Positions 13,041 through 31,232 of a stretch of 64,000 nucleotides of DNA are shown piece by piece; the first letter of the stretch is position 1, and every line of letters begins with the position of its first letter. The stretch covers positions 809,001 through 873,000 of the forward strand of contig NZ_CP032345.1 of the NCBI RefSeq assembly GCF_005222205.1, read 5' to 3'. Under the pieces are notes generated by a model. It searched no databases, was not told the origin of the DNA, and was given only the letters and a program-made list of their open reading frames with translations. Origin of the DNA: Azospirillum brasilense (GTDB taxonomy: Bacteria; Pseudomonadota; Alphaproteobacteria; Azospirillales; Azospirillaceae). A program made the translations under genes and the position numbers.

Positions 13041-13145
13041 TAAGCCCGGCGCGGCAAAGCGGTCAACCCTGCCAAAGAGGTAGGACGGATGGTCAGGTAT
13101 GCGGATTATTCATGATGAAACCACCGACATGAAACCACCGGCGGC

Positions 13146-13823
13146 TCAGGCCCGCAACGACGAGAGGATCAGCTCCACCATATGGTCCAGCCGCTCCGCC
13201 TTGGCCTCCTCGGCGAGCAGGTCGCGGCCGAAGATGACCGACAGGGTGTGGACGTTGGACAGGTAGAAGTAGGACTGTCCGGCGATGGAGATGTAGAGCT
13301 GCACCGGGTCCACCCCGGCCCGGAAGATCCCGGTGGCGACGCCCCGTTCCAGAACGTCGGCGATCATCTGCACGAAGGGCGAATGCATGGCGTGCACCTT
13401 GTCGGAGGTCTTCAGCAACTCCGCCCGGTGCAGGTTCTCGATGTTCAGCAGCGCCATGAACTCGGGATGGTCGAGGAAATACTGCCAGGTGAAGTGGATC
13501 AGCCGGGCGATGGCGGCGGGCGGGTCCAGCGTCTCCAGGCTCAGCGTGCGTTCGGTGGCGCGGATGTGCTCGTAAGCGCCCTCCAGCACGGTCAGATACA
13601 GGCTCTCCTTGTTGCCGACATGGTAGTAGAGCATGCGCTTGTTGGTGCCGGCGACCTCGGCGATCCGCTCGACGCGGGCGCCGCCCAGCCCATAGCGTGC
13701 GAACTCCTCCGTCGCGGCGGCAAGGATGCGCGCGCGGGTGCCCTCCGGATCGCGGGTGACCTTCGCGGGTTTGGCCGGCTTGGCTGCGGAAGCGGTCTTC
13801 TTCGGGTCGGTCAGCGTGTCCAT
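13146..13823 (-). CDS. TetR family transcriptional regulator
   Basis: A 225-residue regulator. The basic N-terminus (KPAKPAKVTRDPEGTRARIL) leads into a TetR helix-turn-helix, ILAAATEEFARYGLGGARVERIAEVAG followed by NKRMLYYHVGNKESLY. The C-terminal ligand domain resembles those of the TetR_C group that regulate pyrimidine or other catabolic operons. ATG 13823 is chosen because GAGGAC lies 9 nt upstream; an in-frame start at 13865 is less likely. It is transcribed toward the catabolic operon 169 bp downstream, and the operator between them suggests repression relieved by the imported compound or an intermediate. Confidence 0.87.
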   Translation of the reverse strand: MDTLTDPKKTASAAKPAKPAKVTRDPEGTRARILAAATEEFARYGLGGARVERIAEVAGTNKRMLYYHVGNKESLYLTVLEGAYEHIRATERTLSLETLDPPAAIARLIHFTWQYFLDHPEFMALLNIENLHRAELLKTSDKVHAMHSPFVQMIADVLERGVATGIFRAGVDPVQLYISIAGQSYFYLSNVHTLSVIFGRDLLAEEAKAERLDHMVELILSSLRA

Positions 13824-13910
13824 CCAGGCCGGTCCTCGCATGCGCGGCCGGAGGGCGAGCCGCAATCCGTTCCAATGTGGAGCATATCAGCCGAAACGGA
13901 AAGACGCCTT

Positions 13911-16330: not shown

Positions 16331-16583
16331 GTCGATACCCTCCACCTGAATCTTTCTTTGACCACCCCTTTAGGGAGTCCCGGGCCGCGGCGGCTGTAAC
16401 GAATTTGGTCGAAGCCGCCGCCGGCCTCTCATCATCGGGCCGTCCGGACCGCAGCCGGTTTGCGGATCGCCAAGCCTTGAACGGCCAAGTCTAGCGCATT
16501 GGCCCAACACCGATTTCTGCAATTTCGGGGGCGCCGCGGTCCCATCCGCAGACGGTGCGTCCCACCAACGAACGCGGGCGGAG

Positions 16584-19343
16584 TCAGTTCAGGTCGCGGG
16601 CCACCCGCAACCCGTCGGCGAAATAGCGTACGTCGGCGTCGTAGCCGATGCGGGCGGTGACGGCGATGGCGTCCTGCCCGTCGCGCCAGGAGCCGCCGCG
16701 CAGCACCCGCTTGCGGCAATCGCCCTCCGTCCAGGCGCTGCCGTCCGTCGGGGCGCCCTTGTAGCCGGGGTTCCAGCAGTCGGCGACCCACTCCGCCACA
16801 CCGCCGCTGGTGTCGTAGAGGCCGAAGGCGTTGGGCTGGAAGCTGCCGACCGGCGCCGGCAGGGAGCGGTCGGCGGCCCCGCCGCAGTCGCGGCAGTTGG
16901 CCAGCCGCGCCCCCGGCGTCAGGCTGTCCCCCCAGGCGAAGCGCGCCGCGCTGCCGCCGCGCGCCGCATACTCCCACTCGGCCTCGCTCGGCAGCCGGTA
17001 GCGCTGGCCGGTCTTGCGGCTGAGCCACTCGGTGTAGGCCTGCGCGTCCTCCATATGGATGTTGTGGACCGGCGTGTCGTCGGAGGGGTTGCGCATCCGC
17101 GGCATGGCGGCGCAACCGCCGCCCTCCACGCAGGCCCGCCAGTTGGCGACCGTCACCTCATAGACCCCGATGGCGAAGGGCCGGGCGAAGGTGACGCGGC
17201 GGGGCGGGCGCTGGCTGGGGTCGCCGCGATCGCTGCCCATGACGAAGCTGCCGGCGGGGATGCGCATCATCGGCGGACAGTCCGGGCAATCCTGGAAGCT
17301 GCTGCCGTTGCCCTGCGCCCGCCCCTGCGATCCTCCCGGCTGAACCGGTGCTGCGAGCGCCAGCCGCTGGCGGTCCTCCGGGCCGGCGGGACGCAGCGCG
17401 GGGCCGCGGACGAAGCCCTGCACGCCGCCCTGGGTGCCGTCATCCATGGCCACCCGGTACCAGTCGGCGTCGGCCACCCGCCCCAGCACCCGCACCGCGC
17501 CGTCCTTGGCGAGGGTGCCGACCCGCTCCGACCGTGCGTCCGGCCCGGCGCGCAACTCCGCGTCGGCGACGGCGACGTACATCCCCTCCCCGGCGGTGTC
17601 GAGCTGAAGTTCCGGAGGCGGGGACGCCTTGCCGCCGGGCGCTCCATTCCCTGCCCCATTGCCCGCCCCATTCCCCGATGACCCGCTGCTCCCCGCCCCG
17701 CCCGGCGAGGGAACCGCCGCGACCTTGGCCGATTCGGCGCGCAGCCGGTTCAGCCGGTCCCGCGCCGGGGCGGCGAAGGGGCCGGTGCCGAACAGCCGCA
17801 GGAAGGCGTCCAGCGCGTCGGCGTCACGGCTGTCGCGCACGCGGCGCCACAGCGACTCCTCCAGGTCGGCCTGCGGCGGGGCGGCGCCGGCCTCCTCGAC
17901 CTCCAGCAGCGCGCTCATCGTCGTGCGCCCGCCGCGCCCGTCCTCGACCAGCACGCTGAACACCCCGGCGCGGCCCGCCGGCGCCCGTTCCGGGTCGAAG
18001 GTCAGGGCGGTCAGCCGCTCCGGCGCAAGCTTGTCGCCGGGCTTCAGCGGGGTGGTGCCGTCGTGAACCTTGCCGCGCTCCGGCACGGCGCTGACGGTGA
18101 AGGTCAGCGGGTCGCCGTCCGGGTCGGTCGGCACCTCCAGCCGCAGGCTGTTGACCACGGCGCGCACGCTGCGCTCGGCGACGGCGACCGGCGGCCGGTT
18201 GCTCGGCTTGATGAGGATCGGCACGGCGCCCCGCGCCACCCCGCCGCGCCCGTCCATCACCGCGAACTCGAAACTGCCGGCGTCGCCCAGATGGGTGGCG
18301 TCGGCCCGGAAGGTCGCGGCGGTGAGCTGGTCGAGCGTCAGATAATCGCCGATCAGCACCACCCGGTCGCCGATGCGCACCCCGCCGCCGCGCGGCAGGC
18401 CGGTCACCTGGGCGAAGAGCTGGTCGTTGTCGGGGTCGCTTGGCCGCGCGATGCCCAGCCCCTCCGTCCCGCCGCGGTCGAACACCTCCAGCGTCTTGAA
18501 GGCGGCGAGCTGCGGCGGCCGGTTCTCCGGCAGCGGGTTGAAGTAGAAGGGGGCGGCCCCCAGCGAACCGTAGAGGAAGGGCTCCTGCCGGCCCTGGGTG
18601 ACCTGCATGACGTCGTCGCGCACGCGGCGGAAGAACAGGCTCAGCTCCAGCCCCGGCACGTCGAAATTCTTCAGCAGCGACGCGGTGTAGGGGCTGTGGT
18701 CGCCCTGCCCGTCCTCGGCCACCGCGTCGGCGCGGGTCGCCATGGCGACCAGCGTGTCGGTCGGCGTGTCGTCGACGCGGGCGAAGCCGGAATGCACCTC
18801 CGTCCGCTTGGTGCCGGACCGCACCAGCCGGTCGGCGAAGGGGTTGTTGCGGCAGGCGTCCAGGATCAGGATGCCCAGCTTGCGCGCCTGGGCCAGCTCG
18901 CCCATCGGCAGGTTCAGGGGCAGCGCCTCGTAGACCAGATCGCGCTCGCGCTCCAGCCGGGCATCGGCGGGGATCAGGAAGTTGGTGCCGCCCACCTGCA
19001 TGCCGTGGCCGGCGAAATAGAGCAGCGCCACGTCGGCCTGCGCCGCTTGGATGCCGAAACCGCGCAGCGCCTCGGCCATGCCGCGGTTGTCGAGGTCGTA
19101 GCGCTCCTCCACCGCGAAGCCGAGCTTGCGCAGGGCCGCCGACATGGCGCGGGCGTCGTTGCGCGGGTTGGGCAGCTCGGTGGCGTGGCGGTAGGCGCCG
19201 ACGCCGATGACGAGCGCGATGCGCTGCTCCGGCGCGGTGGCCGCCAAAGCGGGCGACACCCACGCCGCCACGGCCAGCAGAAGGCCGGCGGACAGGACCA
19301 GGAGGATGCGGCACGAGACGAAACGGTGAAGGAGCGAAGCCAT
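16584..19343 (-). CDS. Exported caspase-family protease with cadherin-like, SH3 and FGE-sulfatase domains
   Basis: The 919-residue protein starts with a signal peptide or membrane anchor (to about residue 35). A C14 caspase domain follows (about 39-268) with an intact dyad, His113 in YFAGHGMQ and Cys164 in LILDACRNNPFADRL. Two cadherin-like repeats come next (about 273-383 and 385-483, the second with TDPDGDPLTFTV), then a Gly/Asn-rich linker, an SH3 domain (588-648) and a C-terminal FGE-sulfatase domain (686-919; PAGSFVMGSD, LPSEAEWEYAARGG, VLRGGSWRDG). The C-terminal Cys pair of true formylglycine-generating enzymes is missing, so this domain is probably a binding module. ATG 19343 and GTG 19349 are alternative starts. 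Confidence 0.87.
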   Translation of the reverse strand: MASLLHRFVSCRILLVLSAGLLLAVAAWVSPALAATAPEQRIALVIGVGAYRHATELPNPRNDARAMSAALRKLGFAVEERYDLDNRGMAEALRGFGIQAAQADVALLYFAGHGMQVGGTNFLIPADARLERERDLVYEALPLNLPMGELAQARKLGILILDACRNNPFADRLVRSGTKRTEVHSGFARVDDTPTDTLVAMATRADAVAEDGQGDHSPYTASLLKNFDVPGLELSLFFRRVRDDVMQVTQGRQEPFLYGSLGAAPFYFNPLPENRPPQLAAFKTLEVFDRGGTEGLGIARPSDPDNDQLFAQVTGLPRGGGVRIGDRVVLIGDYLTLDQLTAATFRADATHLGDAGSFEFAVMDGRGGVARGAVPILIKPSNRPPVAVAERSVRAVVNSLRLEVPTDPDGDPLTFTVSAVPERGKVHDGTTPLKPGDKLAPERLTALTFDPERAPAGRAGVFSVLVEDGRGGRTTMSALLEVEEAGAAPPQADLEESLWRRVRDSRDADALDAFLRLFGTGPFAAPARDRLNRLRAESAKVAAVPSPGGAGSSGSSGNGAGNGAGNGAPGGKASPPPELQLDTAGEGMYVAVADAELRAGPDARSERVGTLAKDGAVRVLGRVADADWYRVAMDDGTQGGVQGFVRGPALRPAGPEDRQRLALAAPVQPGGSQGRAQGNGSSFQDCPDCPPMMRIPAGSFVMGSDRGDPSQRPPRRVTFARPFAIGVYEVTVANWRACVEGGGCAAMPRMRNPSDDTPVHNIHMEDAQAYTEWLSRKTGQRYRLPSEAEWEYAARGGSAARFAWGDSLTPGARLANCRDCGGAADRSLPAPVGSFQPNAFGLYDTSGGVAEWVADCWNPGYKGAPTDGSAWTEGDCRKRVLRGGSWRDGQDAIAVTARIGYDADVRYFADGLRVARDLN

Positions 19344-19545
19344 GGTCACCCCATGCCATGGTCACCGGACGGCGGAGCGAGGGCGCCCCATTGTCCATAC
19401 CGTCCAGTATTTGGCCGCGCCCCCCGGAACAAGAGGACAAAACCGGCTAAGAGCCTCCCCCAGGCGTGGGGATGGCCACCCGCAAGAAAGGCGGGACGCC
19501 CGGCGGGCGGGACCGGCGAATGCGCGATCCGGGGCGAGGTTGTGC

Positions 19546-19930: not shown

Positions 19931-20542
19931 TCAGCTTGGCCGGCTGTGGCGGCGCAGTTCCGCGGCCAGCCCGGCCATCAGCGTCTCGCCGCCCGACAGG
20001 GTGAGGCCGCGCACCAGGATCAGCGACGGCAGATGGTTCCGGCGCAGCAGAAGCAGCCGGTAGCCGGCGCGCGGACGCCGCCCCCTTCCGGGCTTCTCCT
20101 CCTCCATGTCCACGTCACCGCCTGCCAGCGCCAGCTCGCGTTCGTGCTGCTGCGGGGTCATCGTCTGGATGCGCGCCACGAACAGCGGCCGCTTGCCCTG
20201 CGGCGGGTAGAGAGCCACGCCGCGGATGGTGTTGTGCGGGATGAGCTGCCCGTGGGCGGTCAGCCCCTCCGGCGCCACGACCAGCCGGACGGCGCTGCGC
20301 CTCGCGGCCCGCAGCAGCGTGATCACCCACATCAGCAGAAGCGGGATCGCGCACAGCATGCCCAGCCAGCGCAGCATCGAGGCCGCCGGCTCCAGCGTCA
20401 GCTCGGCGACCACGACGAAGCCGGCCAGCAGGATCGCCGCGTAGAGCAGATGGGCGAAGCGCTGGGGCGGCACGCTGGAGGGCGACGCCTCGAACACCGC
20501 CGCCTGCCCCGTATCCTCGCGGGAGATCTCGACCTCGGGCAT
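19931..20542 (-). CDS. Hypothetical protein with two membrane segments
   Basis: I do not recognise this 203-residue protein. After a short acidic N-terminus it has two adjacent hydrophobic helices (FAHLLYAAILLAGFVVVAEL and MLRWLGMLCAIPLLLMWVI). A soluble part follows that reads like a PH-type beta domain (VRLVVAPEGLTAHGQLIPHN). A basic spacer (PGRGRRPRAG) precedes the last third. ATG 20542 is chosen because GAGGA lies upstream at about 10 nt; a GTG at 20575 would add 11 residues. Two transmembrane helices plus a PH-like domain resemble small bacterial membrane PH-domain proteins, but that is only a guess. Confidence 0.6.
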   Translation of the reverse strand: MPEVEISREDTGQAAVFEASPSSVPPQRFAHLLYAAILLAGFVVVAELTLEPAASMLRWLGMLCAIPLLLMWVITLLRAARRSAVRLVVAPEGLTAHGQLIPHNTIRGVALYPPQGKRPLFVARIQTMTPQQHERELALAGGDVDMEEEKPGRGRRPRAGYRLLLLRRNHLPSLILVRGLTLSGGETLMAGLAAELRRHSRPS

Positions 20543-20866
20543 CCCGTCCGCATCCTCGTCGCTGCGCCACCGCACACCGCCCTAATACCTCCGGCGCGCG
20601 CAACTTGCCAGCGGGGCGGCGTCCGGCATTCCAGGCACCTGTCCGGACATCCGGACAGCCACAGCGCGGGGCGGCTGCGCAAAAGCACGGAAAACCGCCG
20701 CTCGGCGCCCCTGCCAAGCGCTGGCATGGGCATTGCTTTCCTTTGCAACGAAGCGTCCCGTGGCCGCGTCGTTCCCTGTGGCCATGGCGGCGATTCCTCC
20801 AAAGCATCTGGCCGGCCGCACCGTCGTTTTTCGCGACGGATGCGACCGGCACTTTTTTGGCGGACG

Positions 20867-21286
20867 TCAGGTCCCGGCGGGCGGCTCGGCCCCTTCGGTC
20901 GGGAAGTCGGCGGGAAGCGTGATCTCCAGCATCTCCAGATCGTCGGAATGCGCGATCTCCACATGCCGGATGCCCGGCGGCTGGTGCACGCAGGAACCGG
21001 CCTGCAACAGCACCTCCCCCACGCCCTCATACGCGAACTTCACCCAGCCCTTCAGCACATAGACCATCTGGAAATCCAGCGCGTGCCGGTGCCAGCCGCC
21101 GTGCGACGGCTCGCCGGGGCGGGCGCGGATGACGTGGGCGTTCGCCTTACCCGCCGTGGCGGCGCGGATGCCCAGGTCGCGGTATTCGAAGAAAGGCCGC
21201 AGCCCGTCGCGCGTGAAGTCCGCCGGATCGGCGTGGCTGACCGCGAAGGTCACCGAATCGTTCGCAGGCGCGTCGTTTTTGGACAT
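20867..21286 (-). CDS. Cupin domain protein
   Basis: A 139-residue single-domain cupin. Its two conserved motifs are visible: HGGWHRHALDFQMVYVLKGW with metal-type histidines and a downstream GSCVHQPPGIRHVEI. Small cupins of this kind bind a metal and act as isomerases, dioxygenases or sensors. GGAGG lies 8 nt before ATG 21286. It is divergent from the propionyl-CoA synthase gene, 174 bp apart, so it may serve the same metabolic route, but nothing in the sequence proves that. The interval 20543-20866 (324 bp) between the membrane-protein gene and this one shows no recognisable gene or signal. Confidence 0.8.
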   Translation of the reverse strand: MSKNDAPANDSVTFAVSHADPADFTRDGLRPFFEYRDLGIRAATAGKANAHVIRARPGEPSHGGWHRHALDFQMVYVLKGWVKFAYEGVGEVLLQAGSCVHQPPGIRHVEIAHSDDLEMLEITLPADFPTEGAEPPAGT

Positions 21287-21394
21287 GCCGTTTCCTCCCA
21301 TGCTCATTGATTGCTCCGAGTATGACCGAAAGCCGCGTATACGGCATACCCCCGCCGCGCACGGCGCCATTGCGGCGGATGCAGGGCGCCGCGC

Positions 21395-21400
21395 TATAGT
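21395..21400 (+). promoter_or_regulatory. Possible -10 box upstream of propionyl-CoA synthase
   Basis: TATAGT lies 61 bp before ATG 21461. A TTGCGG about 19 bp upstream could serve as -35 but the spacing is long. The same interval holds an imperfect inverted repeat around 21320-21350 (GTATG...CATAC with inner GCCG...CGGC) that could be an operator. Both are weak. Confidence 0.3.
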
Positions 21401-21460
21401 GATGCCCGCCGCGCACAAGACGTGGCCGCCAAGGAAGAAATGCCTGATCGGGAGGAAAGC

Positions 21461-24400
21461 ATGGACCACGCCGTCGCGGAGTCCGCCGGACAGCCGCCGC
21501 TGCCGCAGGACGTTGCCGTCAACCCCATCCGCTCCGCCGCGGACTGGCAGAGCCAGCGCGCCGCCTGCGCCGCCGATCCCGGCGCCTTCCACGGCGCCAT
21601 CGCCGCACAGACGATCCACTGGTTCGACGGCGCAAACTGGCTGATGCGCGGGGCGGACGGCGTGTGGCGCGGCTGGAACGCGGCAACGGGCGAGGCTGCG
21701 GAGCGGGCGGACTGGACGCCCTGGACCCAGGCCTTCGACGGGTCGGAGGCGCCCTTCTACCGCTGGTTCGCGGGCGGACTGACCAACGCCGCCTTCAACG
21801 AGGTGGACCGCCACGTCCTGTCCGGCCATGGGTCGGAGACCGCCTACTGGTACGAGGGCGACCGCTGGGACGCCGCCGCCAACGGCGGGCGCGGAGGCCC
21901 GGTCCATCACGTCACGCTGACCCGGCGCGAACTGCTGATCCGCTCGGCGCTCGCCGCTCTGGCGCTGCGTGGGCTGGGCCTGCGTCAGGGCGACCGCATC
22001 GCGCTGAACATGCCCAACATCCTCGACCAGATCGTCTGGACGGAGGGGGCGAAGCGCCTCGGCGTCATCTACACAGCCGTCTTCGGCGGCTTCTCCGACA
22101 AGACGCTGTCCGACCGCATCGAGAACGCCGGCGCCCGCGTCGTCATCACCGCCGACGGCGCCAGCCGCAACGCCGAGATGGCCCCCTTCAAGGAGGCCTA
22201 CAGCGACCCGGCGCTCGACCGCTTCGTCGCCTTGCCCACGGCGCTGCGCATCACCGAGGAGGTCCTGCGCGCCAAGCTGGGCGACACCGCCCTGATGGAG
22301 CCGGTGCGCCGCGGGCTGGAGGGTGAGATCACCGTCGCCCCCGCCGACGTGATGCGGGAGCTGGGCCGGGCGCTGGACCGCGCCGGGACGCTCGACGCCG
22401 CCACCGTGGCCGACCTGCGCGCCAGCGTCGCCGAGGCGCTGACCGCCGCCCCGCCGCGGGTCGAGGCGGTGATCGTCGTCCGCCACGCCGGGCTTCCCGA
22501 CATTCCCTGGACCGAGGGCCGCGATGTCTGGGCGCACGAACTGCTGGCAAAGGCCGAGGCGGAGCTGTGCGCCGCCGCTGGCCTGCCGGATACCGGTCTT
22601 CCGGGCATGGACGCGCTGCGCGCGCTGGACGACCGGGCGCTCTACGCCGCCGTGGCGAAGGCCGTTCCCTGCGTCCCGGTGGATGCCGAGTATCCGCTGT
22701 TCATCATCTACACCTCCGGCTCAACCGGGAAGCCGAAGGGCGTGGTGCATGTCCATGGCGGCTACGTCGCCGGCCTCGCCCACACCATGAAGGTCAGCTT
22801 CGACGCCCTGCCGGGCCGCGACGCGATCTACGTCGTCGCCGATCCCGGCTGGATCACCGGACAGAGCTACCTCATCACCGCCAGCCTCGCCGCCCGCATC
22901 CCCGGCATCGTGACGGAGGGGGCGCCGGTCTTCCCCAACGCCGGGCGCTTCGCCTCGATCATCGAGCGGCACAAAGTCACCATCTTCAAGGCGGGCGTGA
23001 CCTTCCTGAAGACGGTCATGACCCACCCGGAGAACCGCGCCGACGTCGAGCGCTACGACCGCAGCAGCTTGCGCGTCGCGACCTTCTGCGCGGAGCCGAC
23101 CAGCCCCGCCGTCCAGGCCTTCGGCATGGCGGTGATGACGCCGCAATACATCAACAGCTATTGGGCGACCGAGCATGGCGGCATCGTCTGGACCCACCCC
23201 TACGGCAACCCCGACCAACCGCTGCGCGCCGACGCCCACACCTACCCGCTGCCCTGGGTTCTCGGCGACGTCTGGGTTCCCGAGAGCGAGCCGGACGCCG
23301 CCGGACGCGTCGCCTTCCGCTCCGCCGAGCCTGAGGAGAAGGGCGAGATCGTCGTCACCGCCCCCTACCCCTACCTGACCCGCACCATCTGGGGCGACGC
23401 GGAGAATGTCGGTAAACCAGGCTGGAAGGGCGATTTCGACCGTTTCGTGACGACCTATTTCGGGCGCTTCCGCGATGCGGACGGCAAGCCGGTCTGGGCC
23501 TACCTGCAAGGCGACTTCGCGCGCAAGTACGAGGACGGCAGCTTCAGCCTGCACGGCCGGTCCGACGACGTGATCAACGTGTCCGGCCACCGCATGGGGA
23601 CGGAGGAGATCGAGGGCGCGATCCTGCGCGACAAACAGATCAACCCCGACAGCCCGGTCGGCAACGTCATCGTGGTCGGCGCCCCCCACCGCGAGAAGGG
23701 CCTGACCCCGGTCGCCTTCGTCCTGCCCGCCAAGGGCCGCGACCTGACGGCGGACGACGAGCGCCGGCTGAAGGATCTGGTGCGGCAGGAGAAGGGTGCG
23801 GTCGCGGTCCCCTCCGACATCCTCGCCGTCCCGGCCTTTCCCGAGACGCGCTCCGGCAAGTACATGCGCCGCTTCCTGACGGCGATGATGAACGGGGAGC
23901 CGCTGGGCGATACCTCCACCCTGCGCAACCCGGAATGCCTGTCCGACCTGGAGGCGCGTATCGCCGCCTGGACGCGCGGCCAGCAGCGGGCGGAGGAACA
24001 GACCCTCATCGAGCGGCAGCGCTTCCTGTCCGTCCAGTACGACCGGCTGGCCGACGGCGTGCGCCTGGCGACCGTCACCATCGACAACCCGCCGGTCAAC
24101 GCCCTGTCCGACCGCCTGCTCGACGAGCTGGACACGCTGGTCGCCCATCTTGCCCGGCGGAGCGACGTGCGCGCCGTGGTGATCACCGGCACGGGGCGCA
24201 ACTTCGTGGCCGGCGCCGACATCCGCCAGCTTCTCGACGAGGTGCGGGACGAGGGCGAGGCCCGCGCCCTGCCCGCCAAGGCCCACGCCGTCTTCCGCGC
24301 CATCGCGGCGCTGGACAAGCCGGTGTTCGCGGCGATCCGCGGCGTGGCGCTCGGCGGCGGCTGCGAGCTGGCGATGGCTTGCCATGTCCGGGTGGCCGAC

Positions 24401-26926
24401 CCGCGCGCCCGGCTGGGTCAGCCGGAGATCAACCTGTTCCTGCCGCCCGGCTATGGCGGGACGCAGCGCTTGCCGCGCCTGCTGCTGCGCAAGGACCCGG
24501 AGCATGGGTATGAACGCGCGCTGGAGATCCTGCTGTCCGGGCGCCAGATCGACGCGGAAACGGCGCTGGAGTATGGCTTGGTGGATGTGGTGGCGCGCGG
24601 GGCGGACGACGCGCTGACGCTGGCGAAGGCGATGGCGAGGGAGGCGGCGCTTGCCCCCACGAACACCCATGCCCCCACGAACACCCATGCCCCCACCCTA
24701 ACCCTCCCCCGCTGCGCAGGGGAGGGAACTCCGCCGCCCGCCGACAAAACCCTCCCCTGCGCAGCGGGGGAGGGAGGGGCCCGCGAAGCGGGAGGGTGGG
24801 GGCAATACTCCGCCAAAACCGCCCGCCTCCTTCGCCAAGCCCACAGCGTCGGCCGTGGCCCCGTCGCCGACACCATCGTCCAGCTCGTCGACACCGGCCT
24901 GCGCGACGGCTTCGACGCCGGCTCATCCGCCGAAATCGCCGCCTTCGCCCGCTTCCTCCTGGACTCCGACAACGGCGCCAAGAAGGGCATCGCCCTGTTC
25001 CTGGAGAAGAAATCGCCGCCCCTGCCCGCCCGGCCGCGGCGCGACAGCCGCGACGGCGTGATGCCCATCGGCAGCCCCTTCATCCCCGGCGCCACCCCCC
25101 TGCCGCGCTGGCAGATCGCCCAGGCCGTCGTCCGCGACCTGGAGACGGGAGCCGCCGCCCATGGCGACCCGGCGCAGGCCGAGACGGAAGTCGTCATCCC
25201 CGTCCCCGAGCCCGGGCCCAACCAGGCGCTCGTCTACATCCTCGTCTCCGAGGTCAACTACAACGACGTCTGGGCGCTGACCGGCATCCCCATTTCCCTG
25301 TTCGACGAGCATGACGAGGACGTGCACGTCACCGGCTCCGGCGGCGTCGGCATGGTCGTGCGGATGGGCGAGGCGTTGCAGGCCCAGGGGCGGCTGGCGG
25401 TCGGCGATCTGGTCGCCGTCTATTCCGGCGTCTCCGACCTGCTGGACCCGGAGGCCGGGGCCGACCCGATGTTCACTGACTTCCACATCCAGGGTTACCA
25501 GTCGCCGGACGGCAGCCACCAGCAATTCATGCTGGCCGATGGGCCGCAGCTCTTCCCGCTGCCGCCCGGCCTCGCGCTGGAGGAGGCGGGCAGCTACATG
25601 CTCGCCGCCGGCACCGGCTACCGCGCGCTGTTCACGGCGCTCGACGTGCAGCCGGGCAAGCGCCTGCTGGTCGAGGGTGCTGCGGGCGGTACCGGCGCCT
25701 GGACGGTGGAGCTGGCGCTGGCCCGGCGCATGAAGGTGACCGGCATGGTGTCGTCGGAACGCCGCGCCGCCGCGATCCGCGCCCGTGGGGCGGAGGCGGT
25801 GGACCGCTCCATCGCCGAGGCCGCCTTCACCCGCATCCCCGCCGACCCGGCGCAGTGGGCAGCGTGGGAGAGCGCGGGCCAGCCCTACATCGACGCGCTG
25901 CGCGCCGCCAATGGTGGTCAGCTCGTCGACTACGCGGTCAGCCACGCCGGCGAAACGACCTTCCCGCGCACCTTCCAATCGTTGGCGGACGGCGGCGGGC
26001 TGACCTTCTTCGGCGCCTCCAGCGGCTACCACATGACCTTCCTCGGCAAGCCCGGCGCCGCCGAGCCCGCCGAGATGCTGCGCCGCGCCCGCCTGCGGCC
26101 CGGCGAGGCAGTTTTGGTCTTCTACGGCGCCGGGGCGATGGGGCTGCGCGACGACATGGCGCTGTCGGCCATCGAGGCGGCCCGCGAGTCCGGCGCCCGC
26201 GTCTGCGTCGTCACCGACCGCGATTCCGAACGCGACTTCGTGCTGTCGCTGGGCTACGGCGAGGCGCTGGCCGGCGCCGTGTCGCTGGCCGAGATCACGC
26301 GCCGCGTCCCGCATTTCGATTGGCCCGACACCATGCCGGACCTGCCCGACCCGCAGCGCGAGACCGCCGCCTTCAAGGAGGCCGTGCGGCTGTTCACCGA
26401 GGACACCTTCAAGCCGCTGGGACAGGCGGTGGGCCGCATCCTGCGCGCCGCCGACAACCCGCGCGGCATGCCGGACGTGGTGGTGGAGCGGGCGCGGCGC
26501 GACACGCTGGCCGTCTCGACTATGCTCGTGAAGCCGCACACGGGGCGCGTGGTCTATTGCGGCGATATGGCCCCCAATGGAAATGGTCGTCGCTACAGCT
26601 TCTACGCGCCGCAGGTGTGGATGCGGCAGCGCCGCATCCTGATGCCATCCGCGACCATCGTCGGTACGCATCTTTCGAACGCTGCGGAAATCGCAGGGCT
26701 GAACCGCGTCATTGCGTCGGGGGCGGTCCGTGTGCCAACGACATACCTCGGGAACTGGGACGAGCTGCCCACGCTCCATCAGGCCATGTGGGAGAACCGC
26801 CTGCCGGAAGCGACCGGCGGCGCCGCCAAGGCCGTCGTGAACCACGCGCTGCCGGAAGCGGGCCTGACCTCGCGCGACGAACTGCTGATCGCCTGGGCGG
26901 GGTCGGCAACAGGAAAGGGACAATGA
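21461..26926 (+). CDS. pcs: Propionyl-CoA synthase (trifunctional acyl-CoA synthetase / enoyl-CoA hydratase / enoyl-CoA reductase)
   Basis: A single 1821-residue chain unites three enzymes that convert 3-hydroxypropionate, CoA, ATP and NADPH to propionyl-CoA. Residues ~30-850 are an AMP-forming synthetase with YTSGSTGKPKGVVHVHGG near 415-432 and catalytic Lys800 (TRSGKYMRR). Residues ~857-1060 are a crotonase domain with both catalytic glutamates, Glu969 (GGGCELAMA) and Glu989 (GQPEINLF), spaced 20 as in true hydratases. Residues ~1180-1821 are an MDR-type reductase with VEGAAGGTGAW near 1403. Layout and length match propionyl-CoA synthases of Chloroflexus and Erythrobacter. Residues 1065-1115 come from a palindromic repeat lying in frame in the linker. 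GGGAGGA precedes ATG 21461. Confidence 0.9.
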   Translation: MDHAVAESAGQPPLPQDVAVNPIRSAADWQSQRAACAADPGAFHGAIAAQTIHWFDGANWLMRGADGVWRGWNAATGEAAERADWTPWTQAFDGSEAPFYRWFAGGLTNAAFNEVDRHVLSGHGSETAYWYEGDRWDAAANGGRGGPVHHVTLTRRELLIRSALAALALRGLGLRQGDRIALNMPNILDQIVWTEGAKRLGVIYTAVFGGFSDKTLSDRIENAGARVVITADGASRNAEMAPFKEAYSDPALDRFVALPTALRITEEVLRAKLGDTALMEPVRRGLEGEITVAPADVMRELGRALDRAGTLDAATVADLRASVAEALTAAPPRVEAVIVVRHAGLPDIPWTEGRDVWAHELLAKAEAELCAAAGLPDTGLPGMDALRALDDRALYAAVAKAVPCVPVDAEYPLFIIYTSGSTGKPKGVVHVHGGYVAGLAHTMKVSFDALPGRDAIYVVADPGWITGQSYLITASLAARIPGIVTEGAPVFPNAGRFASIIERHKVTIFKAGVTFLKTVMTHPENRADVERYDRSSLRVATFCAEPTSPAVQAFGMAVMTPQYINSYWATEHGGIVWTHPYGNPDQPLRADAHTYPLPWVLGDVWVPESEPDAAGRVAFRSAEPEEKGEIVVTAPYPYLTRTIWGDAENVGKPGWKGDFDRFVTTYFGRFRDADGKPVWAYLQGDFARKYEDGSFSLHGRSDDVINVSGHRMGTEEIEGAILRDKQINPDSPVGNVIVVGAPHREKGLTPVAFVLPAKGRDLTADDERRLKDLVRQEKGAVAVPSDILAVPAFPETRSGKYMRRFLTAMMNGEPLGDTSTLRNPECLSDLEARIAAWTRGQQRAEEQTLIERQRFLSVQYDRLADGVRLATVTIDNPPVNALSDRLLDELDTLVAHLARRSDVRAVVITGTGRNFVAGADIRQLLDEVRDEGEARALPAKAHAVFRAIAALDKPVFAAIRGVALGGGCELAMACHVRVADPRARLGQPEINLFLPPGYGGTQRLPRLLLRKDPEHGYERALEILLSGRQIDAETALEYGLVDVVARGADDALTLAKAMAREAALAPTNTHAPTNTHAPTLTLPRCAGEGTPPPADKTLPCAAGEGGAREAGGWGQYSAKTARLLRQAHSVGRGPVADTIVQLVDTGLRDGFDAGSSAEIAAFARFLLDSDNGAKKGIALFLEKKSPPLPARPRRDSRDGVMPIGSPFIPGATPLPRWQIAQAVVRDLETGAAAHGDPAQAETEVVIPVPEPGPNQALVYILVSEVNYNDVWALTGIPISLFDEHDEDVHVTGSGGVGMVVRMGEALQAQGRLAVGDLVAVYSGVSDLLDPEAGADPMFTDFHIQGYQSPDGSHQQFMLADGPQLFPLPPGLALEEAGSYMLAAGTGYRALFTALDVQPGKRLLVEGAAGGTGAWTVELALARRMKVTGMVSSERRAAAIRARGAEAVDRSIAEAAFTRIPADPAQWAAWESAGQPYIDALRAANGGQLVDYAVSHAGETTFPRTFQSLADGGGLTFFGASSGYHMTFLGKPGAAEPAEMLRRARLRPGEAVLVFYGAGAMGLRDDMALSAIEAARESGARVCVVTDRDSERDFVLSLGYGEALAGAVSLAEITRRVPHFDWPDTMPDLPDPQRETAAFKEAVRLFTEDTFKPLGQAVGRILRAADNPRGMPDVVVERARRDTLAVSTMLVKPHTGRVVYCGDMAPNGNGRRYSFYAPQVWMRQRRILMPSATIVGTHLSNAAEIAGLNRVIASGAVRVPTTYLGNWDELPTLHQAMWENRLPEATGGAAKAVVNHALPEAGLTSRDELLIAWAGSATGKGQ
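24653..24688 (+). repeat. 18-bp direct repeat, two copies, inside pcs
   Basis: GCCCCCACGAACACCCAT occurs twice head to tail and its first eight bases start again at 24689, where the palindromic repeat begins. It encodes APTNTH twice. Because 18 is a multiple of three, copy number can change without breaking the reading frame. Confidence 0.85.
24689..24803. repeat. Palindromic repeat lying in frame inside pcs
   Basis: Begins GCCCCCACCCTAACCCTCCC and ends AGCGGGAGGGTGGGGGC. Its two long arms contain CCCTCCCCTGCGCAGCGGGG and the partner CCCCCGCTGCGCAGGGGAGG. The same element occurs between genes at 3645, 10071 and 30002. Here it is open in the pcs frame and encodes LPRCAGEG and LPCAAGEG motifs in the linker between the hydratase and reductase domains. 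Confidence 0.85.
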
Positions 26927-27696
26927 GGCTTATCATCAAGGACCTGTGCCACCGCTACGACGACCTCGTCGTGCTGGACGGCATCGACCTGACGGTGCAG
27001 GAGGGCGAGGTTCTGGCCGTCATCGGCCCGTCGGGCTGCGGCAAGTCCACCCTGCTCGGCATCGCCGGCGGCATCGTGGCACCCACCTCCGGCACCATCG
27101 CGGTGGCGGGCGAGGTGCCGGACGGCTGCCTGAACCCGATCACCTTCATCTTCCAGGACTTCGCCCTGCTGCCCTGGCGCAGCGTCGAGGACAACCTGTC
27201 GCTCGTCCTCGAACACCACCCGCTGTCGGCGGCGGATCGGCGGGAGCGCATCGAGTCCGGCCTGCGCCGCATGGGGCTGTGGGACTTCCGCAAGGCGCTG
27301 CCCAAGCAGCTGTCGGGCGGCATGCGCCAGCGTGTCGGCATCGCCCGCGCGCTGGCCGTGCGCCCGGCCATGCTGCTGCTGGACGAGCCGCTGTCGGCGC
27401 TCGACGCCCAGACGCGCGAGCTGCTGATGGAGGATTTCCTGTCGCTCTGGCAGCGCGAGCGGACGACCGCCCTCTACGTCACCCACAATCTGGACGAGGC
27501 GCTGCGGCTCGCCGACCGGGTCGTCGTGCTCAGCCGCCGTCCGGGCCGCCTGCGCGAGATCGTGACCATCGAGGAGCCGCGCGACCAGCGGCTTGAGCCC
27601 TCCGCCCAGGCGCATCTGGCGGAAGTGCGCGACCGGCTGTGGCACCTGATCCGGGCCGAGGCCCAACTGGCCGACCGGGAGATCGCCGATGCCTGA
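26923..27696 (+). CDS. ABC transporter ATP-binding protein coupled to pcs
   Basis: A 257-residue ATPase of the nitrate/sulfonate/taurine (SsuB-like) group. Its ATG overlaps the pcs stop codon (ATGA), so translation of the two is coupled. Motifs are Walker A GPSGCGKSTLL, Q-loop FIFQDFALLPWRS, signature LSGGMRQRVGIARAL, Walker B MLLLDEPLSALD and switch His in YVTHNLDEALRLADRV. It powers the importer encoded by the next two genes. Overlap with pcs implies that the importer brings in the substrate of the synthase or a precursor such as 3-hydroxypropionate or acrylate. Confidence 0.9.
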   Translation: MRLIIKDLCHRYDDLVVLDGIDLTVQEGEVLAVIGPSGCGKSTLLGIAGGIVAPTSGTIAVAGEVPDGCLNPITFIFQDFALLPWRSVEDNLSLVLEHHPLSAADRRERIESGLRRMGLWDFRKALPKQLSGGMRQRVGIARALAVRPAMLLLDEPLSALDAQTRELLMEDFLSLWQRERTTALYVTHNLDEALRLADRVVVLSRRPGRLREIVTIEEPRDQRLEPSAQAHLAEVRDRLWHLIRAEAQLADREIADA

Positions 27697-28528
27697 TACC
27701 CCTTTGACCAGCACCAGCCTCCCGATGACCGAACGTTCCGCCGTGCCGGCGCAACCCGTCCGCTTCCGCGGCGGCGGCTTCACGGTGAAGGGGCACCGCT
27801 GGGCGGCGCTGCTCGCCTTCGTGGTCCTGATCGCGGTGTGGGAGTCCACCAACCGCTTCGGCCTCGTCAGCGAGTTGTTCCTGCCGCCGCCGAGCGCGGT
27901 CGCCTCGGCGCTCGCCGCCATGGCGCAGGACGGATCGCTGTGGCAGCACCTGAAGGCGTCGCTGATGCGCATCGGCGTCGGCTGGGTCATGGGCACGGTG
28001 GCCGGCATGGCCGTGGGCTTCGCCATGGGCATCGGCTCGGTGGCGCGGGCGGTCGGCGTGCCGCTGGTCTCGGCCTTCTTCCCGATCCCGAAGATCGCCC
28101 TGCTGCCGCTGTTCATCCTGTGGTTCGGCATCGGCGAGCCGTCGAAGTTCGCCACCATCGGCTTCGGCGTCTTCTTCCCCACCGTGATCGCCACCTACAG
28201 CGCCATCGATTCGGTGCCGCGCAACCTGATCCGCATGGCGCAGAGCTTCGGCCTGCCCTGGGCGTCGATCCTGCGCAAGATCGTGCTTCCCGGCGCCCTG
28301 CCCGGCATCCTCGCCGGTTTCCGCATCACCGCCTCCATCGCGCTGATCCTGGTGGTCGCGGCGGAGATGATCGGGGCGGAATACGGCATCGGCGCCTTCG
28401 TCCTGACCGCCGGCAACCTGATGCTGACCGACCAGCTTCTGGCCGGCGTGCTGGTTCTCTCGCTGCTCGGCCTGGGCATCGGGACCGTGCTGTCCATCCT
28501 GGAACGCCGCCTGCTGAAATGGCGGTGA
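27689..28528 (+). CDS. ABC transporter permease of the pcs operon
   Basis: A 279-residue inner-membrane permease of the SsuC type with six hydrophobic segments after a basic N-terminus. The coupling loop is visible as ILRKIVLPGALPGILAGFRI near residues 192-211. The start overlaps the ATPase gene by 8 bp, so it belongs to the same transcript. It would pair with the ATPase at 26923 and the binding protein at 28561. The transported compound is inferred only from the linkage to propionyl-CoA synthase. Confidence 0.9.
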   Translation: MPDTPLTSTSLPMTERSAVPAQPVRFRGGGFTVKGHRWAALLAFVVLIAVWESTNRFGLVSELFLPPPSAVASALAAMAQDGSLWQHLKASLMRIGVGWVMGTVAGMAVGFAMGIGSVARAVGVPLVSAFFPIPKIALLPLFILWFGIGEPSKFATIGFGVFFPTVIATYSAIDSVPRNLIRMAQSFGLPWASILRKIVLPGALPGILAGFRITASIALILVVAAEMIGAEYGIGAFVLTAGNLMLTDQLLAGVLVLSLLGLGIGTVLSILERRLLKWR

Positions 28529-28560
28529 GAAAAATGATGATTGAAAATGGGAGACTGAGA

Positions 28561-29583
28561 ATGACCGTCGTGCGTTGGAGCCGCCGTTTGGTTCTGGGTG
28601 CAATGGGTGCCGCGGCCCTGGCGCTGGCCGGGACGCCCGCCGCCGAGGCGCAGGGATTGGAGAAGACCTCCATCGGCGTGCTGGCGCTGGCCTCCTCCGG
28701 CCCGATCTTCATCGCCAAATCCAAGGGCTATTTCGAGAAGGAAGGGCTGGACGTCGACCTGAAGATGTTCACCTCGGCCCAGCAGGTGCCGGTGGCGGTG
28801 GCCTCGGGCGACGTGGATTTCGGCGTCACCGGCCTGACGGCGGGCTTCTACAACCTCGCGGCCAAGGGCGCCGTCACCATGATCGCGGCGCAGAGCCGCG
28901 ACGAGCCGGGCTTCCAGCTCAGCGCCTATGTGGCGACCAAGGCGGCGCACGACGCCGGGCTGACCAAGCCGGCGGACCTCAAGGGCAAGCGCATCGCCAT
29001 CACCACGGTCGGCTCGACCTTCCATTACATGGTCGGCCTGCTCGGCCAGAAGCACGGCTTCTCGGTCAAGGACGTGACCATGGTGGCGATGCAGGACGTG
29101 CCGAAGATGGTCGCCGCCTTCAAGGGCGGTCAGGTGGACGCGGTGATCGCCCCGGTGACGGTGGCCCGTCAGCTCGCCGCCGAAGGTTCCGGCACCATCC
29201 TGGGCTGGGTCGGCGACGAGACGCCGTGGCAGCTCGGCGCCCTCTTCACCAGCCCGAAGACCGTCGCCCAGCGCCGCCCGCTGGCCGAGAAGTTCGTCAG
29301 CGCCTATCTGACCGCTCTGGCCGAATACCACGCCGCCTTCAACGCCAAGGACGCGTCGGGCGCCATTGTGAAGGGGCCGGGCTACGACGAACTGCTGGCG
29401 ATCATCGCCGAGGCGACGAAGCAGAAGCCCGAGGTGGTCGCCGCCGGCCTGCCCTACGTCGAGCCGAAGGGCAAGCTGCTGGTCGACGACGTCGTCAATC
29501 AGGTGAAGTTCTGGCAGTCCGAAGGTCAGGTGGACAAGGCGCTGGACGCCAAGTCCGTCATGGACCTGACCTTCGTAAAGTGA
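28561..29583 (+). CDS. ABC transporter substrate-binding protein of the pcs operon (NMT1/SsuA-like)
   Basis: A 340-residue periplasmic binding protein with a Tat-like or Sec signal (WSRRLVLGAMGAAALALAGT, cleavage after AAEAQ). The mature part contains GVLALASSGPIFIAKSKGYF and VDFGVTGLTAGFYNLAA, typical of the NMT1/SsuA fold. ATG 28561 follows GGGAGAC; a start at 28533 would put extra residues before the signal. It is the last gene of the pcs operon and ends 9 bp from a convergent gene. The twin arginine suggests that it may be exported folded. Confidence 0.87.
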   Translation: MTVVRWSRRLVLGAMGAAALALAGTPAAEAQGLEKTSIGVLALASSGPIFIAKSKGYFEKEGLDVDLKMFTSAQQVPVAVASGDVDFGVTGLTAGFYNLAAKGAVTMIAAQSRDEPGFQLSAYVATKAAHDAGLTKPADLKGKRIAITTVGSTFHYMVGLLGQKHGFSVKDVTMVAMQDVPKMVAAFKGGQVDAVIAPVTVARQLAAEGSGTILGWVGDETPWQLGALFTSPKTVAQRRPLAEKFVSAYLTALAEYHAAFNAKDASGAIVKGPGYDELLAIIAEATKQKPEVVAAGLPYVEPKGKLLVDDVVNQVKFWQSEGQVDKALDAKSVMDLTFVK

Positions 29584-29592
29584 GGGCAGATT

Positions 29593-29901
29593 TTACCGCT
29601 TGCCCGGTCCGTAGATCTTCGGCTGGGAGAAATTGATGTGGTCGAGAAGCTCCTGAGTCGGACAGCCGTCCACCGGGAGCTTCGCGGCCTTCTGATAGGC
29701 GCGGATGGCGGAGCGGGTGTTGGGGCCGATCTTCCCGTCGATCACGCCGGGGCGGAAGCCCTGCTCGGTCAGGGTCTTCTGGATGCCTTCAACATAGGCG
29801 AAATACATGTCCGGCGTCATCGAGTCCGTCGGGCAGGCGGCGTAGGCCGGGGACGCGAAGGCCGTGGCGGCCAGGAAGGCGGCGAACAGGCTGCGGTTCA
29901 T
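29593..29901 (-). CDS. Small exported peptidoglycan-binding-domain protein
   Basis: A 102-residue secreted protein with a clear signal peptide (MNRSLFAAFLAATAFASPAYA). The mature part is essentially one PG_binding_1 repeat: VEGIQKTLTEQGFRPGVIDG, then IGPNTRSAIRAYQKAAKLPV. Two cysteines (ACPTD near the mature N-terminus and DGCPTQ) could form a disulfide. Such single-domain proteins attach to the cell wall or to an autolysin. It is monocistronic, convergent with the ABC operon, and a palindromic repeat lies behind its start. Confidence 0.8.
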   Translation of the reverse strand: MNRSLFAAFLAATAFASPAYAACPTDSMTPDMYFAYVEGIQKTLTEQGFRPGVIDGKIGPNTRSAIRAYQKAAKLPVDGCPTQELLDHINFSQPKIYGPGKR

Positions 29902-30001
29902 GGTCTCTCTCCGTTTCTTGTTGCGGAGATCAACAACGCAGAGGCCGCGTTTCTTCCCAAGGGGTAAAAATGGGCCAAGGGATAAAAATAGGGGGTGCCT
30001 T

Positions 30002-30088
30002 GCCCCCTCCCCGGCCCTCCCCCGCTTCGCAGGGGAGGGAGGATCAAGTCCCCTCCCCTGCGAAGCGGGGGAGGGTTAGGGTGGGGGC
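30002..30088. repeat. Palindromic repeat (GCCCCC...GGGGGC type)
   Basis: A shorter copy: GCCCCCTCCCCGGCCCTCCC through AGGGTTAGGGTGGGGGC. The inner arms CCCGCTTCGCAGGGGAGGGA and CCCCTCCCCTGCGAAGCGGG are nearly perfect complements. It lies 22 bp beyond the prfB stop and may serve as its terminator. Confidence 0.75.
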
Positions 30089-30109
30089 TAGACCTACCCC
30101 CACCCGCAT

Positions 30110-31232
30110 TCACGCCGCAGCGTCGTCGCTCTGACCCTTCAGGCGGGAAGCCAGCGCCGCTTCCAGGAACATGTCCAGGTCGCCGTCCAGCACCGCCTGG
30201 CTCTGCGAGGTCTCCACCTCGGTCCGCAGGTCCTTCACCATCTGGTAGGGGTGCAGGACGTAGGAGCGGATCTGGTGGCCCCAGCCGATGTCGCTCTTGG
30301 TCGCTTCAAGAGCGGCGGCGGCGTCCTCGCGGATCTTCAGCTCCCGCTCATACAGGCGGGCGCGCAGCATGTCCCACGCCTTGGCGCGGTTCTTGTGCTG
30401 CGAGCGCTCCTGCTGGCAGGCCACCACGATGCCCGTGGGCAGGTGGGTGATGCGGATCGCCGAGTCCGTCTTGTTGACGTGCTGGCCGCCGGCGCCCGAC
30501 GCCCGGAAGGTATCGATGCGGCAGTCCTTCTCGTTGATCTCGATGTTGATCTTGTCGTCGATCACCGGAGACACCGAGACGGCGGCGAAGCTGGTCTGGC
30601 GGCGCGCCTGGCTGTCGAACGGGCTGATGCGCACCAGACGGTGCACGCCGGCCTCGGTCTTCAGCCAGCCGTAGGCGTTGTGGCCGCTGATCTGCGCGGT
30701 GGCGGACTTGATGCCGGCCTCTTCGCCGGGGCTCTCCTCGAGCCACTGCGTCTTGTAGCCGTGCTGTTCCGCCCAGCGGAGGTACATGCGCATCAGCATG
30801 AGCGCCCAGTCCTGGGCCTCCGTGCCGCCGGCGCCGGCGTTCACCTCGATGAAGCAGTCGTTGGCGTCGGCCTCGCCCGAGAGCAGGCTCTCGATCTGGA
30901 GCTTGGCCGCGCGGTCGCGCAGCGCGTAGAGCTGGGCCTCGGCGTCGGCGACCACGGTCGCGTCGCCCTCGGCCTCGCCCATCTCGATCAGCTCCAGGCT
31001 GTCGGACAGGTCGCGCTCAAGCGCACGGTAGCCGTTCACGGAATTTTCGAGCTGGGTGCGCTCGCGCATGATGGTCTGCGCGCGGGACGGGTCGTCCCAC
31101 AGCTTGGGGTCTTCGGCGTGGGCGTTCAGTTCGTCGAGACGACGCAGCGCGTTATCCCAGTCAAAGATGCCTCCTCAGCAGCGCCAGCGATTCTCTAATC
31201 TCGCCGGCGGCCGCTTCGATCTCGGCCCGCAT
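30110..31232 (-). CDS. prfB: Peptide chain release factor 2, with programmed +1 frameshift
   Basis: RF2 reads UGA and UAA stops. The gene starts at ATG 31232 (GAGGAGG upstream) and runs 23 codons, [20 protein letters not shown] then RHL, to an in-frame TGA at 31163-31161. Translation continues in the +1 frame as [15 protein letters not shown] and ends at 30110, giving about 373 residues. The shift site reads AGGAGG CAT CTT TGA C, with the same parts as in E. coli: an internal Shine-Dalgarno 3 nt before CTT, and a UGA stop followed by C. The anticodon motif SPF ([15 protein letters not shown]) and catalytic GGQ ([13 protein letters not shown]) are intact. Confidence 0.95.
31160..31175 (-). promoter_or_regulatory. 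prfB recoding site (autoregulatory +1 frameshift)
   Basis: On the minus strand the 16 bases are AGGAGGCATCTTTGAC. The ribosome pauses at the TGA when RF2 is scarce; AGGAGG pairs with 16S rRNA and CTT slips to TTT. This makes RF2 synthesis depend on RF2 level. Confidence 0.93.

What the first reader, a model, noticed from the sequence alone, without database searches (positions are those of the whole stretch)
21461..29583. Propionyl-CoA synthase translationally coupled to an ABC importer
Propionyl-CoA synthase is known from the 3-hydroxypropionate bicycle of Chloroflexus and from a few aerobic marine bacteria. Here its stop codon overlaps the start of an SsuB-type ATPase followed by permease and binding protein. 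That arrangement predicts an uptake-and-assimilation route for an external C3 acid (3-hydroxypropionate, acrylate or a precursor) rather than CO2 fixation.
Basis: partly seen in the sequence, partly recalled or inferred. Interest (0 to 1): 0.75.

Follow-up and report, generated by a model that had tools for sequence, protein, structure and literature searches.

The report
Orphan propionyl-CoA synthase beside older importer
A soil bacterium (Azospirillum) carries a giant three-in-one enzyme known from a CO2-fixing cycle, but without the partner enzyme of that cycle; it belongs to a separate branch that probably salvages a small acid for food, and the neighbouring nutrient importer looks like an older resident rather than its dedicated supplier.

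Summary
A full-length trifunctional propionyl-CoA synthase (PCS, 21461-26926) ends in an ATGA that is also the start of an ABC ATPase, followed by permease and binding protein. Importer genes follow PCS in 17 of 20 PCS-bearing Azospirillum genomes, with the 4-nt overlap in all 17, and in none of 20 other PCS genomes (one contig ends inside PCS). 'Not CO2 fixation' fits: malonyl-CoA reductase (Mcr) was found in 0 of 45 Azospirillum genomes but beside PCS in four family relatives. A tree puts the Azospirillum PCS in a separate branch whose members have no Mcr beside PCS. 'Importer feeds PCS' is not supported: the importer is in 22 of 25 PCS-less Azospirillum genomes, at the same place in the 17 examined, with no association with PCS. 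A divergent cupin gene does track PCS (16 of 20 versus 0 of 25). Best reading: a stand-alone 3-hydroxypropionate salvage enzyme whose cassette landed beside an older NitT/TauT-type importer. The 3HP source and the importer's ligand are unknown.

The parts
20867..21286 (-). single-domain cupin (139 aa), divergent from PCS; tracks PCS within Azospirillum
   Evidence: PF07883; nearest solved relative 2O8Q, hypothetical protein; in 16 of 20 PCS+ and 0 of 25 PCS- Azospirillum
21287..21460 (.). divergent intergenic region between cupin and PCS
   Evidence: coordinates; no sigma-70-like site found
21461..26926 (+). propionyl-CoA synthase, ACS-ECH-ECR, Mcr-free branch
24662..24802 (+). in-frame repeat-derived linker inside PCS (residues 1068-1114), with perfect 25-nt inverted arms 24702-24726 and 24750-24774
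   Evidence: pLDDT under 50 in the model
26923..26926 (+). ATGA stop/start overlap
26923..27696 (+). ABC ATPase (NitT/TauT class)
27689..28528 (+). ABC permease
28561..29583 (+). periplasmic binding protein, NMT1/SsuA-like fold

Best explanation
The PCS gene encodes a stand-alone propionyl-CoA synthase that works without malonyl-CoA reductase. It activates 3-hydroxypropionate (3HP) to its CoA ester, dehydrates it to acrylyl-CoA and reduces that to propionyl-CoA in one protein, so the toxic acrylyl-CoA is not released; propionyl-CoA then enters central metabolism, most likely by the methylmalonyl-CoA route. Its 3HP is more likely a product of the cell's own C3 breakdown (aldehyde, diol or beta-alanine type) or of a general uptake than of malonyl-CoA reduction. 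The cupin|PCS cassette came to lie between two importers that other Azospirillum already carry in tandem, and the downstream one (oxyanion, sulfonate or pyrimidine class, ligand unknown) is now co-translated with it. Shown: domain make-up, junction, absence of the known Mcr, phylogeny, importer independence. Inferred: substrate, flux direction, fate of propionyl-CoA, insertion history.
For: Full-length match to 6EQO, with the ACS, ECH and ECR motifs that I compared kept, acyl-pocket stretches included. Mcr 0 of 45 in Azospirillum, but beside PCS in 4 of 4 PCS genomes of other genera of the family, with an AccA-like gene next to it in two. Mcr-free branch of 13 rows supported 100/100 and 100 in wider trees. 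In the 4 gammaproteobacterial members of that branch in the tree (L016, L018, L147, L153), and in the untreed fragment L155, an alcohol dehydrogenase gene lies directly upstream: Fe-type in 3, two of them with an aldehyde dehydrogenase too, Zn-type in 2. A full-length methylmalonyl-CoA-mutase family protein in the own genome. The importer has the same upstream neighbours in 17 of 17 PCS-less genomes of the genus that I examined, in 16 behind a second importer; no PCS-importer association (Fisher p = 1.0).
Against: Nothing shows that 3HP is the substrate in vivo. The ATGA overlap is kept in 17 of 17 adjacent genomes, which an accidental neighbour need not show, though these genomes are related. 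The own genome also has two AcuI/YhdH-type reductases over cut-off, so PCS may be redundant for 3HP assimilation. A malonyl-CoA reductase of another family is not excluded. PF01642 also covers other mutases such as ethylmalonyl-CoA mutase (recalled), and propionyl-CoA carboxylase was not sought, so the fate of propionyl-CoA is not shown. No alcohol or aldehyde dehydrogenase was seen beside the Azospirillum PCS. The haloarchaeal PCS and one gammaproteobacterial one (L149) lack adjacent Mcr too without belonging to this branch.
Confidence: 0.6

Rival explanations
1. One reading: the ABC importer takes up an external C3 acid or precursor for PCS.
For: Translational overlap in 17 of 17 adjacent genomes; adjacency in 17 of 20 PCS+ Azospirillum.
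Against: Importer in 22 of 25 PCS-less genomes of the genus, no association; absent or unlinked in 3 PCS+ genomes (G017, G029, G032); its permease and binding protein not found near PCS in 20 of 20 other genomes (in G885 the contig ends inside PCS); the binding-protein fold ranks with sulfonate, bicarbonate, nitrate, taurine and pyrimidine binders, which does not name a ligand; ATPase frameshifted in G044 while its PCS is open.
Confidence: 0.15
2. PCS works in a partial 3HP cycle that takes up CO2, with 3HP made from malonyl-CoA by a reductase unrelated to the known double-SDR Mcr.
For: Relatives in the family have PCS with Mcr, two of them with an AccA-like gene; a haloarchaeal PCS locus holds an acylating aldehyde dehydrogenase and a hydroxyacid reductase instead of Mcr.
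Against: No double-SDR Mcr in 45 genomes; no such genes seen beside the Azospirillum PCS; the PCS sits in a branch whose members lack adjacent Mcr.
Confidence: 0.12
3. PCS mainly removes acrylate or acrylyl-CoA, with the divergent cupin as an acrylate-producing lyase.
For: The cupin tracks PCS; some DMSP lyases are cupins (recalled).
Against: No chain named as a DMSP lyase among the 4 hits at E up to 1; the best hit is a hypothetical protein; the cupin is also in 4 PCS-less genomes of another genus of the family and is missing in 4 of 20 PCS+ Azospirillum.
Confidence: 0.06

Closest known systems
Propionyl-CoA synthase of Erythrobacter sp. NAP1 (6EQO) and Chloroflexus aurantiacus
   Same: three domains in the same order, co-linear with 6EQO, motifs kept; Chloroflexus sequence not compared here
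   Different: separate, well-supported branch from 6EQO; no Mcr found in the genome; ECH signature NLFLPPG instead of the L-R-L-L-P-G of the alphaproteobacterial Mcr-linked group; linker rebuilt from a genomic repeat
Reductive 3HP assimilation of Rhodobacter sphaeroides (AcuI as reductase; passages of PMC6572756)
   Same: works like it: 3HP to propionyl-CoA for assimilation
   Different: one trifunctional protein; AcuI-type genes are also present here
SsuABC / TauABC / NrtABC importers
   Same: binding-protein fold and ATPase/permease class
   Different: every curated score shown is below cut-off; ligand unknown
Haloarchaeal PCS on megaplasmids (Natribaculum, Natronococcus, Natrinema); a 3HP route to propionyl-CoA in Haloferax mediterranei is in print (passages of PMC7137286)
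   Same: full-length PCS without adjacent Mcr in the 3 loci read; one locus has an Fe-alcohol dehydrogenase
   Different: own branch, about 51-55% identity; a mutase-family and an acyl-CoA carboxylase gene beside it in L158

Membership tests
propionyl-CoA synthase | ACS, ECH and ECR domains in one chain, in this order | tested here: met
propionyl-CoA synthase | full-length co-linearity with a solved PCS | tested here: met
   6EQO, query 29-1820 to chain 29-1847; C-terminal half
propionyl-CoA synthase | catalytic motifs (AMP-binding loop, PETRSGK lysine, two ECH glutamates, NADPH loop) | tested here: met
   the roles of the residues are recalled
propionyl-CoA synthase | propionyl-CoA formed from 3HP | not testable with these tools
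   needs an enzyme assay
autotrophic 3-hydroxypropionate bicycle | bifunctional malonyl-CoA reductase in the genome | tested here: not met
   0 of 45 Azospirillum genomes, own included, at E <= 1e-60
autotrophic 3-hydroxypropionate bicycle | methylmalonyl-CoA mutase | tested here: inconclusive
   one full-length PF01642 protein in the own genome, a family that also holds other mutases (recalled)
autotrophic 3-hydroxypropionate bicycle | malyl-CoA lyase, mesaconyl-CoA transferase and hydratases of the second cycle | not tested
   -
NitT/TauT-type ABC importer | ATPase, single permease, NMT1/SsuA-fold binding protein | tested here: met
taurine or alkanesulfonate importer (equivalog) | score over the curated cut-off | tested here: not met
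   those shown are below cut-off, e.g. SsuA family 94.5 against 163.5 bits, taurine binding protein 59.9 against 304.25
importer dedicated to PCS | co-occurrence with PCS | tested here: not met
   18 of 20 versus 22 of 25, Fisher p = 1.0
cupin DMSP lyase | sequence relation to solved DMSP lyases | tested here: inconclusive
   none named so among 4 hits at E <= 1

The most novel reading that the evidence does not exclude
There is a distinct branch of propionyl-CoA synthase that takes no part in CO2 fixation in its present hosts: a stand-alone 3HP (or C3 alcohol/aldehyde) salvage enzyme, found in Azospirillum and other Alpha- and Gammaproteobacteria, with its own genomic partners (alcohol and aldehyde dehydrogenases, or a cupin). 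In Azospirillum one of its linkers has been rebuilt again and again from a genome-wide palindromic repeat.
Probability: 0.45. Interest if true: 0.62.

Novelty: new variant of a known kind. Interest (0 to 1): 0.5.

Why it matters
PCS is usually read as a marker of the 3-hydroxypropionate cycle. If a separate Mcr-free branch serves organic-acid salvage, PCS alone must not be scored as CO2-fixation potential in genomes and metagenomes, and a plant-associated diazotroph gains a testable route for C3 compounds. It also shows that a conserved, translationally coupled neighbour can be an older bystander: the phyletic pattern, not the overlap, decides.

Tried and rejected
Importer as dedicated supplier: rejected as the leading reading on phyletic pattern and synteny. 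Cupin as DMSP lyase: no sequence support. Ligand of the binding protein by fold: the twenty best solved entries (Z 27.8 to 24.0) include sulfonate, bicarbonate, nitrate, taurine and pyrimidine binders, so no ligand can be named. Double-SDR Mcr elsewhere in the own genome: not found (in the SDR domain scan the longest open frame under a match is 732 aa). Promoter and terminator scan: nothing above chance in 20500-30200. The ECH-ECR model from a shallow alignment has only moderate confidence (pLDDT 69.1); used only to note that the linker is unstructured in it. Literature: no paper of the held library has both 'propionyl-CoA synthase' and 'Azospirillum' (0 papers); 'propionyl-CoA synthase' with 'ABC transporter', '3-hydroxypropionate' and 'operon' gave 2 papers, seen in the search listing only; spelling variants of the enzyme's name were not all tried. 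The PCS structure paper (PMC6499725) and the Chloroflexus co-assimilation paper (PMC3165406) are not held. Rows dropped before the tree: two near-copies of the Azospirillum rows. Passages of PMC8269255, PMC11599936, PMC8307300 and PMC4029986 were seen and are not used as evidence.
Full report
What is there. The PCS frame 21461-26926 gives 1821 residues with AMP-binding, enoyl-CoA hydratase and zinc-type reductase domains in order, and it aligns with the solved PCS 6EQO from residue 29 to 1820. TGA 26924-26926 overlaps ATG 26923-26925 of an ABC ATPase; the permease (27689-28528) starts inside the ATPase gene and the binding protein (28561-29583) follows. The window lies in a 7.2-Mb, six-contig genome.

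Conservation of the junction. PCS is in 24 of 82 genomes of the family: 20 of 45 of the window's genus and 4 of 37 of other genera (genus lists typed and counted). Importer genes follow PCS directly in 17 of the 20 (in G006 the gene is split over two contigs). The ATGA overlap is present in all 17: 16 by script and G044 by reading, whose ATPase gene has a frameshift. The three exceptions are G029 (A. soli; no binding protein match in the genome), G017 (A. halopraeferens; none) and G032 (TSO22-1; importer on another contig). Outside the genus I held PCS surroundings from 20 distinct genomes (22 loci, two of them duplicates). In none did the permease or binding protein beside PCS in the window find a match at E <= 1e-6. 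The ATPase query had four distant hits in three loci (30-41% identity), none next to PCS, and the window's other binding protein had one in L153 at 26%. In one of the 20 (G885, L155) the contig ends inside PCS, so its downstream side was not seen.

The importer is older than, or at least independent of, PCS. Its binding protein is in 40 of 45 genomes of the genus: 18 of 20 with PCS and 22 of 25 without (Fisher p = 1.0, not corrected for kinship). I fetched stretches around it from 17 of those 22 PCS-less genomes, plus G032, G001 and G056. In 17 of 17 the upstream neighbours are those of the window's PCS: an 86-aa protein and a 214-aa protein. In 16 of 17 a first importer follows (ATPase 40-43% identical to the window's, two permeases), then this importer at 76-87% identity; L098 lacks the first. 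Downstream, 5 of 17 share the window's next genes (small secreted protein, prfB); in the other 12 the downstream side differs (gene names by eye). In the brasilense group cupin|PCS occupies the place of the first importer. In A. soli the first importer stays and cupin|PCS occupies the place of this one. The simplest history, inferred and not tested on a species tree, is that a cupin|PCS cassette landed between two tandem importers and one or the other was later lost.

What does track PCS. A small divergent cupin gene (20867-21286) is in 16 of 20 PCS-bearing and 0 of 25 PCS-less genomes of the genus (Fisher p = 7e-9, again without correction for kinship). In 16 of 16 it lies next to PCS (places), also in TSO22-1, where PCS is elsewhere in the genome. 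Against a strict link: it is absent in 4 PCS-bearing genomes (G017, G019, G028, G044), has an internal stop in one (G010), and is present in 4 PCS-less genomes of another genus. Its function is unknown; only Cupin_2 matches, and the nearest solved chain is the hypothetical protein 2O8Q.

Mcr. In the four PCS genomes of other genera of the family, PCS is followed by a protein of about 1240 residues. The one from L110 matches over its full length solved double short-chain dehydrogenases, 8HI4 and 8HJW whole and 6K8S and 6K8V in halves (that these are malonyl-CoA reductases is recalled). An AccA-like gene follows in two (by eye, the one of L110 over the AccA cut-off). This protein was not found in any of the 45 genomes of the window's genus at E <= 1e-60. 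In the order of Dasania, PCS was in 11 of 390 genomes. Of these 11 surroundings five have Mcr next to PCS (42-44% identical to the family's), five do not, and in one (G885) the downstream side is not seen. For the newly fetched ones Mcr was sought only in the stretch, not in the whole genome. PCS is rare in wider samples: 5 of 385 of the class and 2 of 398 of the phylum, own genome included.

The PCS tree. With 20 rows (IQ-TREE, LG+C20) the eight Azospirillum rows and five others form one side of a branch supported 100/100; the six Mcr-linked rows and 6EQO form the other. With 26 rows the Mcr-free branch has 13 rows at SH-aLRT 100; the Mcr-linked rows make an alphaproteobacterial and a gammaproteobacterial group, and one row of the latter (L149) has no Mcr beside it. 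With three haloarchaeal rows added the branch stays at 100 and the haloarchaeal rows stand apart, but that all Mcr-linked rows are one side of a branch falls to 53. So lack of adjacent Mcr is not confined to one branch, and whether Mcr was lost or never gained in this one is open; the root is a midpoint and no Chloroflexus row is in. Two members of the Mcr-free branch (L015, L128) have long branches. The motifs compared are kept on both sides, and the acyl-pocket stretches are nearly identical, which argues for the same substrate.

What the branch may do. In the four gammaproteobacterial members of the tree, and in the fragment L155, an alcohol dehydrogenase gene lies directly upstream: Fe-type in L018, L147 and L153 (with an aldehyde dehydrogenase and an amino-acid type permease in L018 and L153), Zn-type in L016 and L155 (families scanned for L147, L153 and L155, the others by likeness). 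The Fe-type of L153 matches methanol, lactaldehyde and 1,3-propanediol dehydrogenases, and both Fe-types scanned are below all curated cut-offs, so the substrate is open. The three alphaproteobacterial members outside Azospirillum (L015, L026, L128) show no such neighbour (by eye). A haloarchaeal locus (L158) has an acyl-CoA carboxylase subunit, a mutase-family gene, PCS, Fe-alcohol dehydrogenase, a hydroxyacid reductase and an acylating aldehyde dehydrogenase. The own genome has one full-length methylmalonyl-CoA-mutase family protein and two AcuI/YhdH-type proteins over cut-off. Two routes of 3HP use, reductive and oxidative, are described in passages of PMC6572756. That lack of PCS and Mcr leaves the bicycle open, while the rest may serve assimilation, is in passages of PMC6593406. 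An A. brasilense aldehyde dehydrogenase is reported to make 3HP from 3-hydroxypropionaldehyde (PMC5385487; search listing with title and start of abstract only), which offers an internal source but no physiological proof.

The importer's ligand. The binding protein model is good (pLDDT 87.8). Its best solved neighbours include SsuA, CmpA, NrtA, TauA, pyrimidine-precursor binding and Thi5 proteins. This places it in the oxyanion/sulfonate/pyrimidine class and does not name a ligand.

A side finding inside PCS. Residues about 1064-1120 of the hydratase region stand where 6EQO has 39 residues. In the Azospirillum rows compared they are replaced by mostly proline- and glycine-rich letters that differ between species. 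In the window this stretch contains a perfect 25-nt inverted pair (24702-24726, 24750-24774) of a repeat that also lies between genes at 29999-30091; it matches at least four other places in the genome at protein level. Six copies with up to 3 mismatches are in the window against none in shuffles (the pattern was chosen after seeing the repeat). The model leaves residues 1068-1114 unstructured between confident helices. In-frame palindromic elements in proteins are known from Rickettsia (recalled).

Verdict. Observation confirmed; interpretation partly supported. The gene is a real PCS of a branch without Mcr, most likely for salvage of 3HP. The importer is a conserved but independent neighbour. 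Tests corrected for kinship, the insertion history and every biochemical step remain to be done.

Noticed in passing
window 24662-24802 and 29999-30091: A palindromic repeat sits in frame inside PCS and also between genes; other Azospirillum PCS genes have differing repeat-like letters at the same linker.
   Followed up: partly
L103 (G044) around 6900, - strand: The importer ATPase is frameshifted and the permease match is split, while PCS upstream is open; real decay or sequencing error.
   Followed up: partly
L156, L157, L158 (haloarchaeal plasmids): Full-length PCS on Natronococcus, Natrinema and Natribaculum plasmids; in L158 beside an acyl-CoA carboxylase subunit, a methylmalonyl-CoA mutase family gene and an Fe-alcohol dehydrogenase.
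   Followed up: partly
L159 7938-9836: Haladaptatus plasmid has a stand-alone gene like the reductase part of PCS, with hydratase genes, an acetate-CoA ligase family gene and a BCCT transporter nearby.
   Followed up: no
L148, L150, L152, L154: In four gammaproteobacterial loci the Mcr frame, by first possible start codon, overlaps the PCS stop by 4 nt: the same kind of junction that the ABC ATPase has in Azospirillum.
   Followed up: no
L083 7041-7379: A 112-aa gene between the two tandem importers of a PCS-less genome matches no NCBIfam family at E <= 1e-5.
   Followed up: no
window 13985-16345 and 16584-19349, - strand: Two neighbouring large, probably secreted proteins that look (by eye, no search) like caspase-like proteins with SH3-like and MORN-like or sulfatase-modifying-factor-like parts.
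   Followed up: no
window 11053-13865, - strand: A second NMT1-like binding protein with permease and a TetR-like regulator (by eye), a different importer from the one beside PCS.
   Followed up: no
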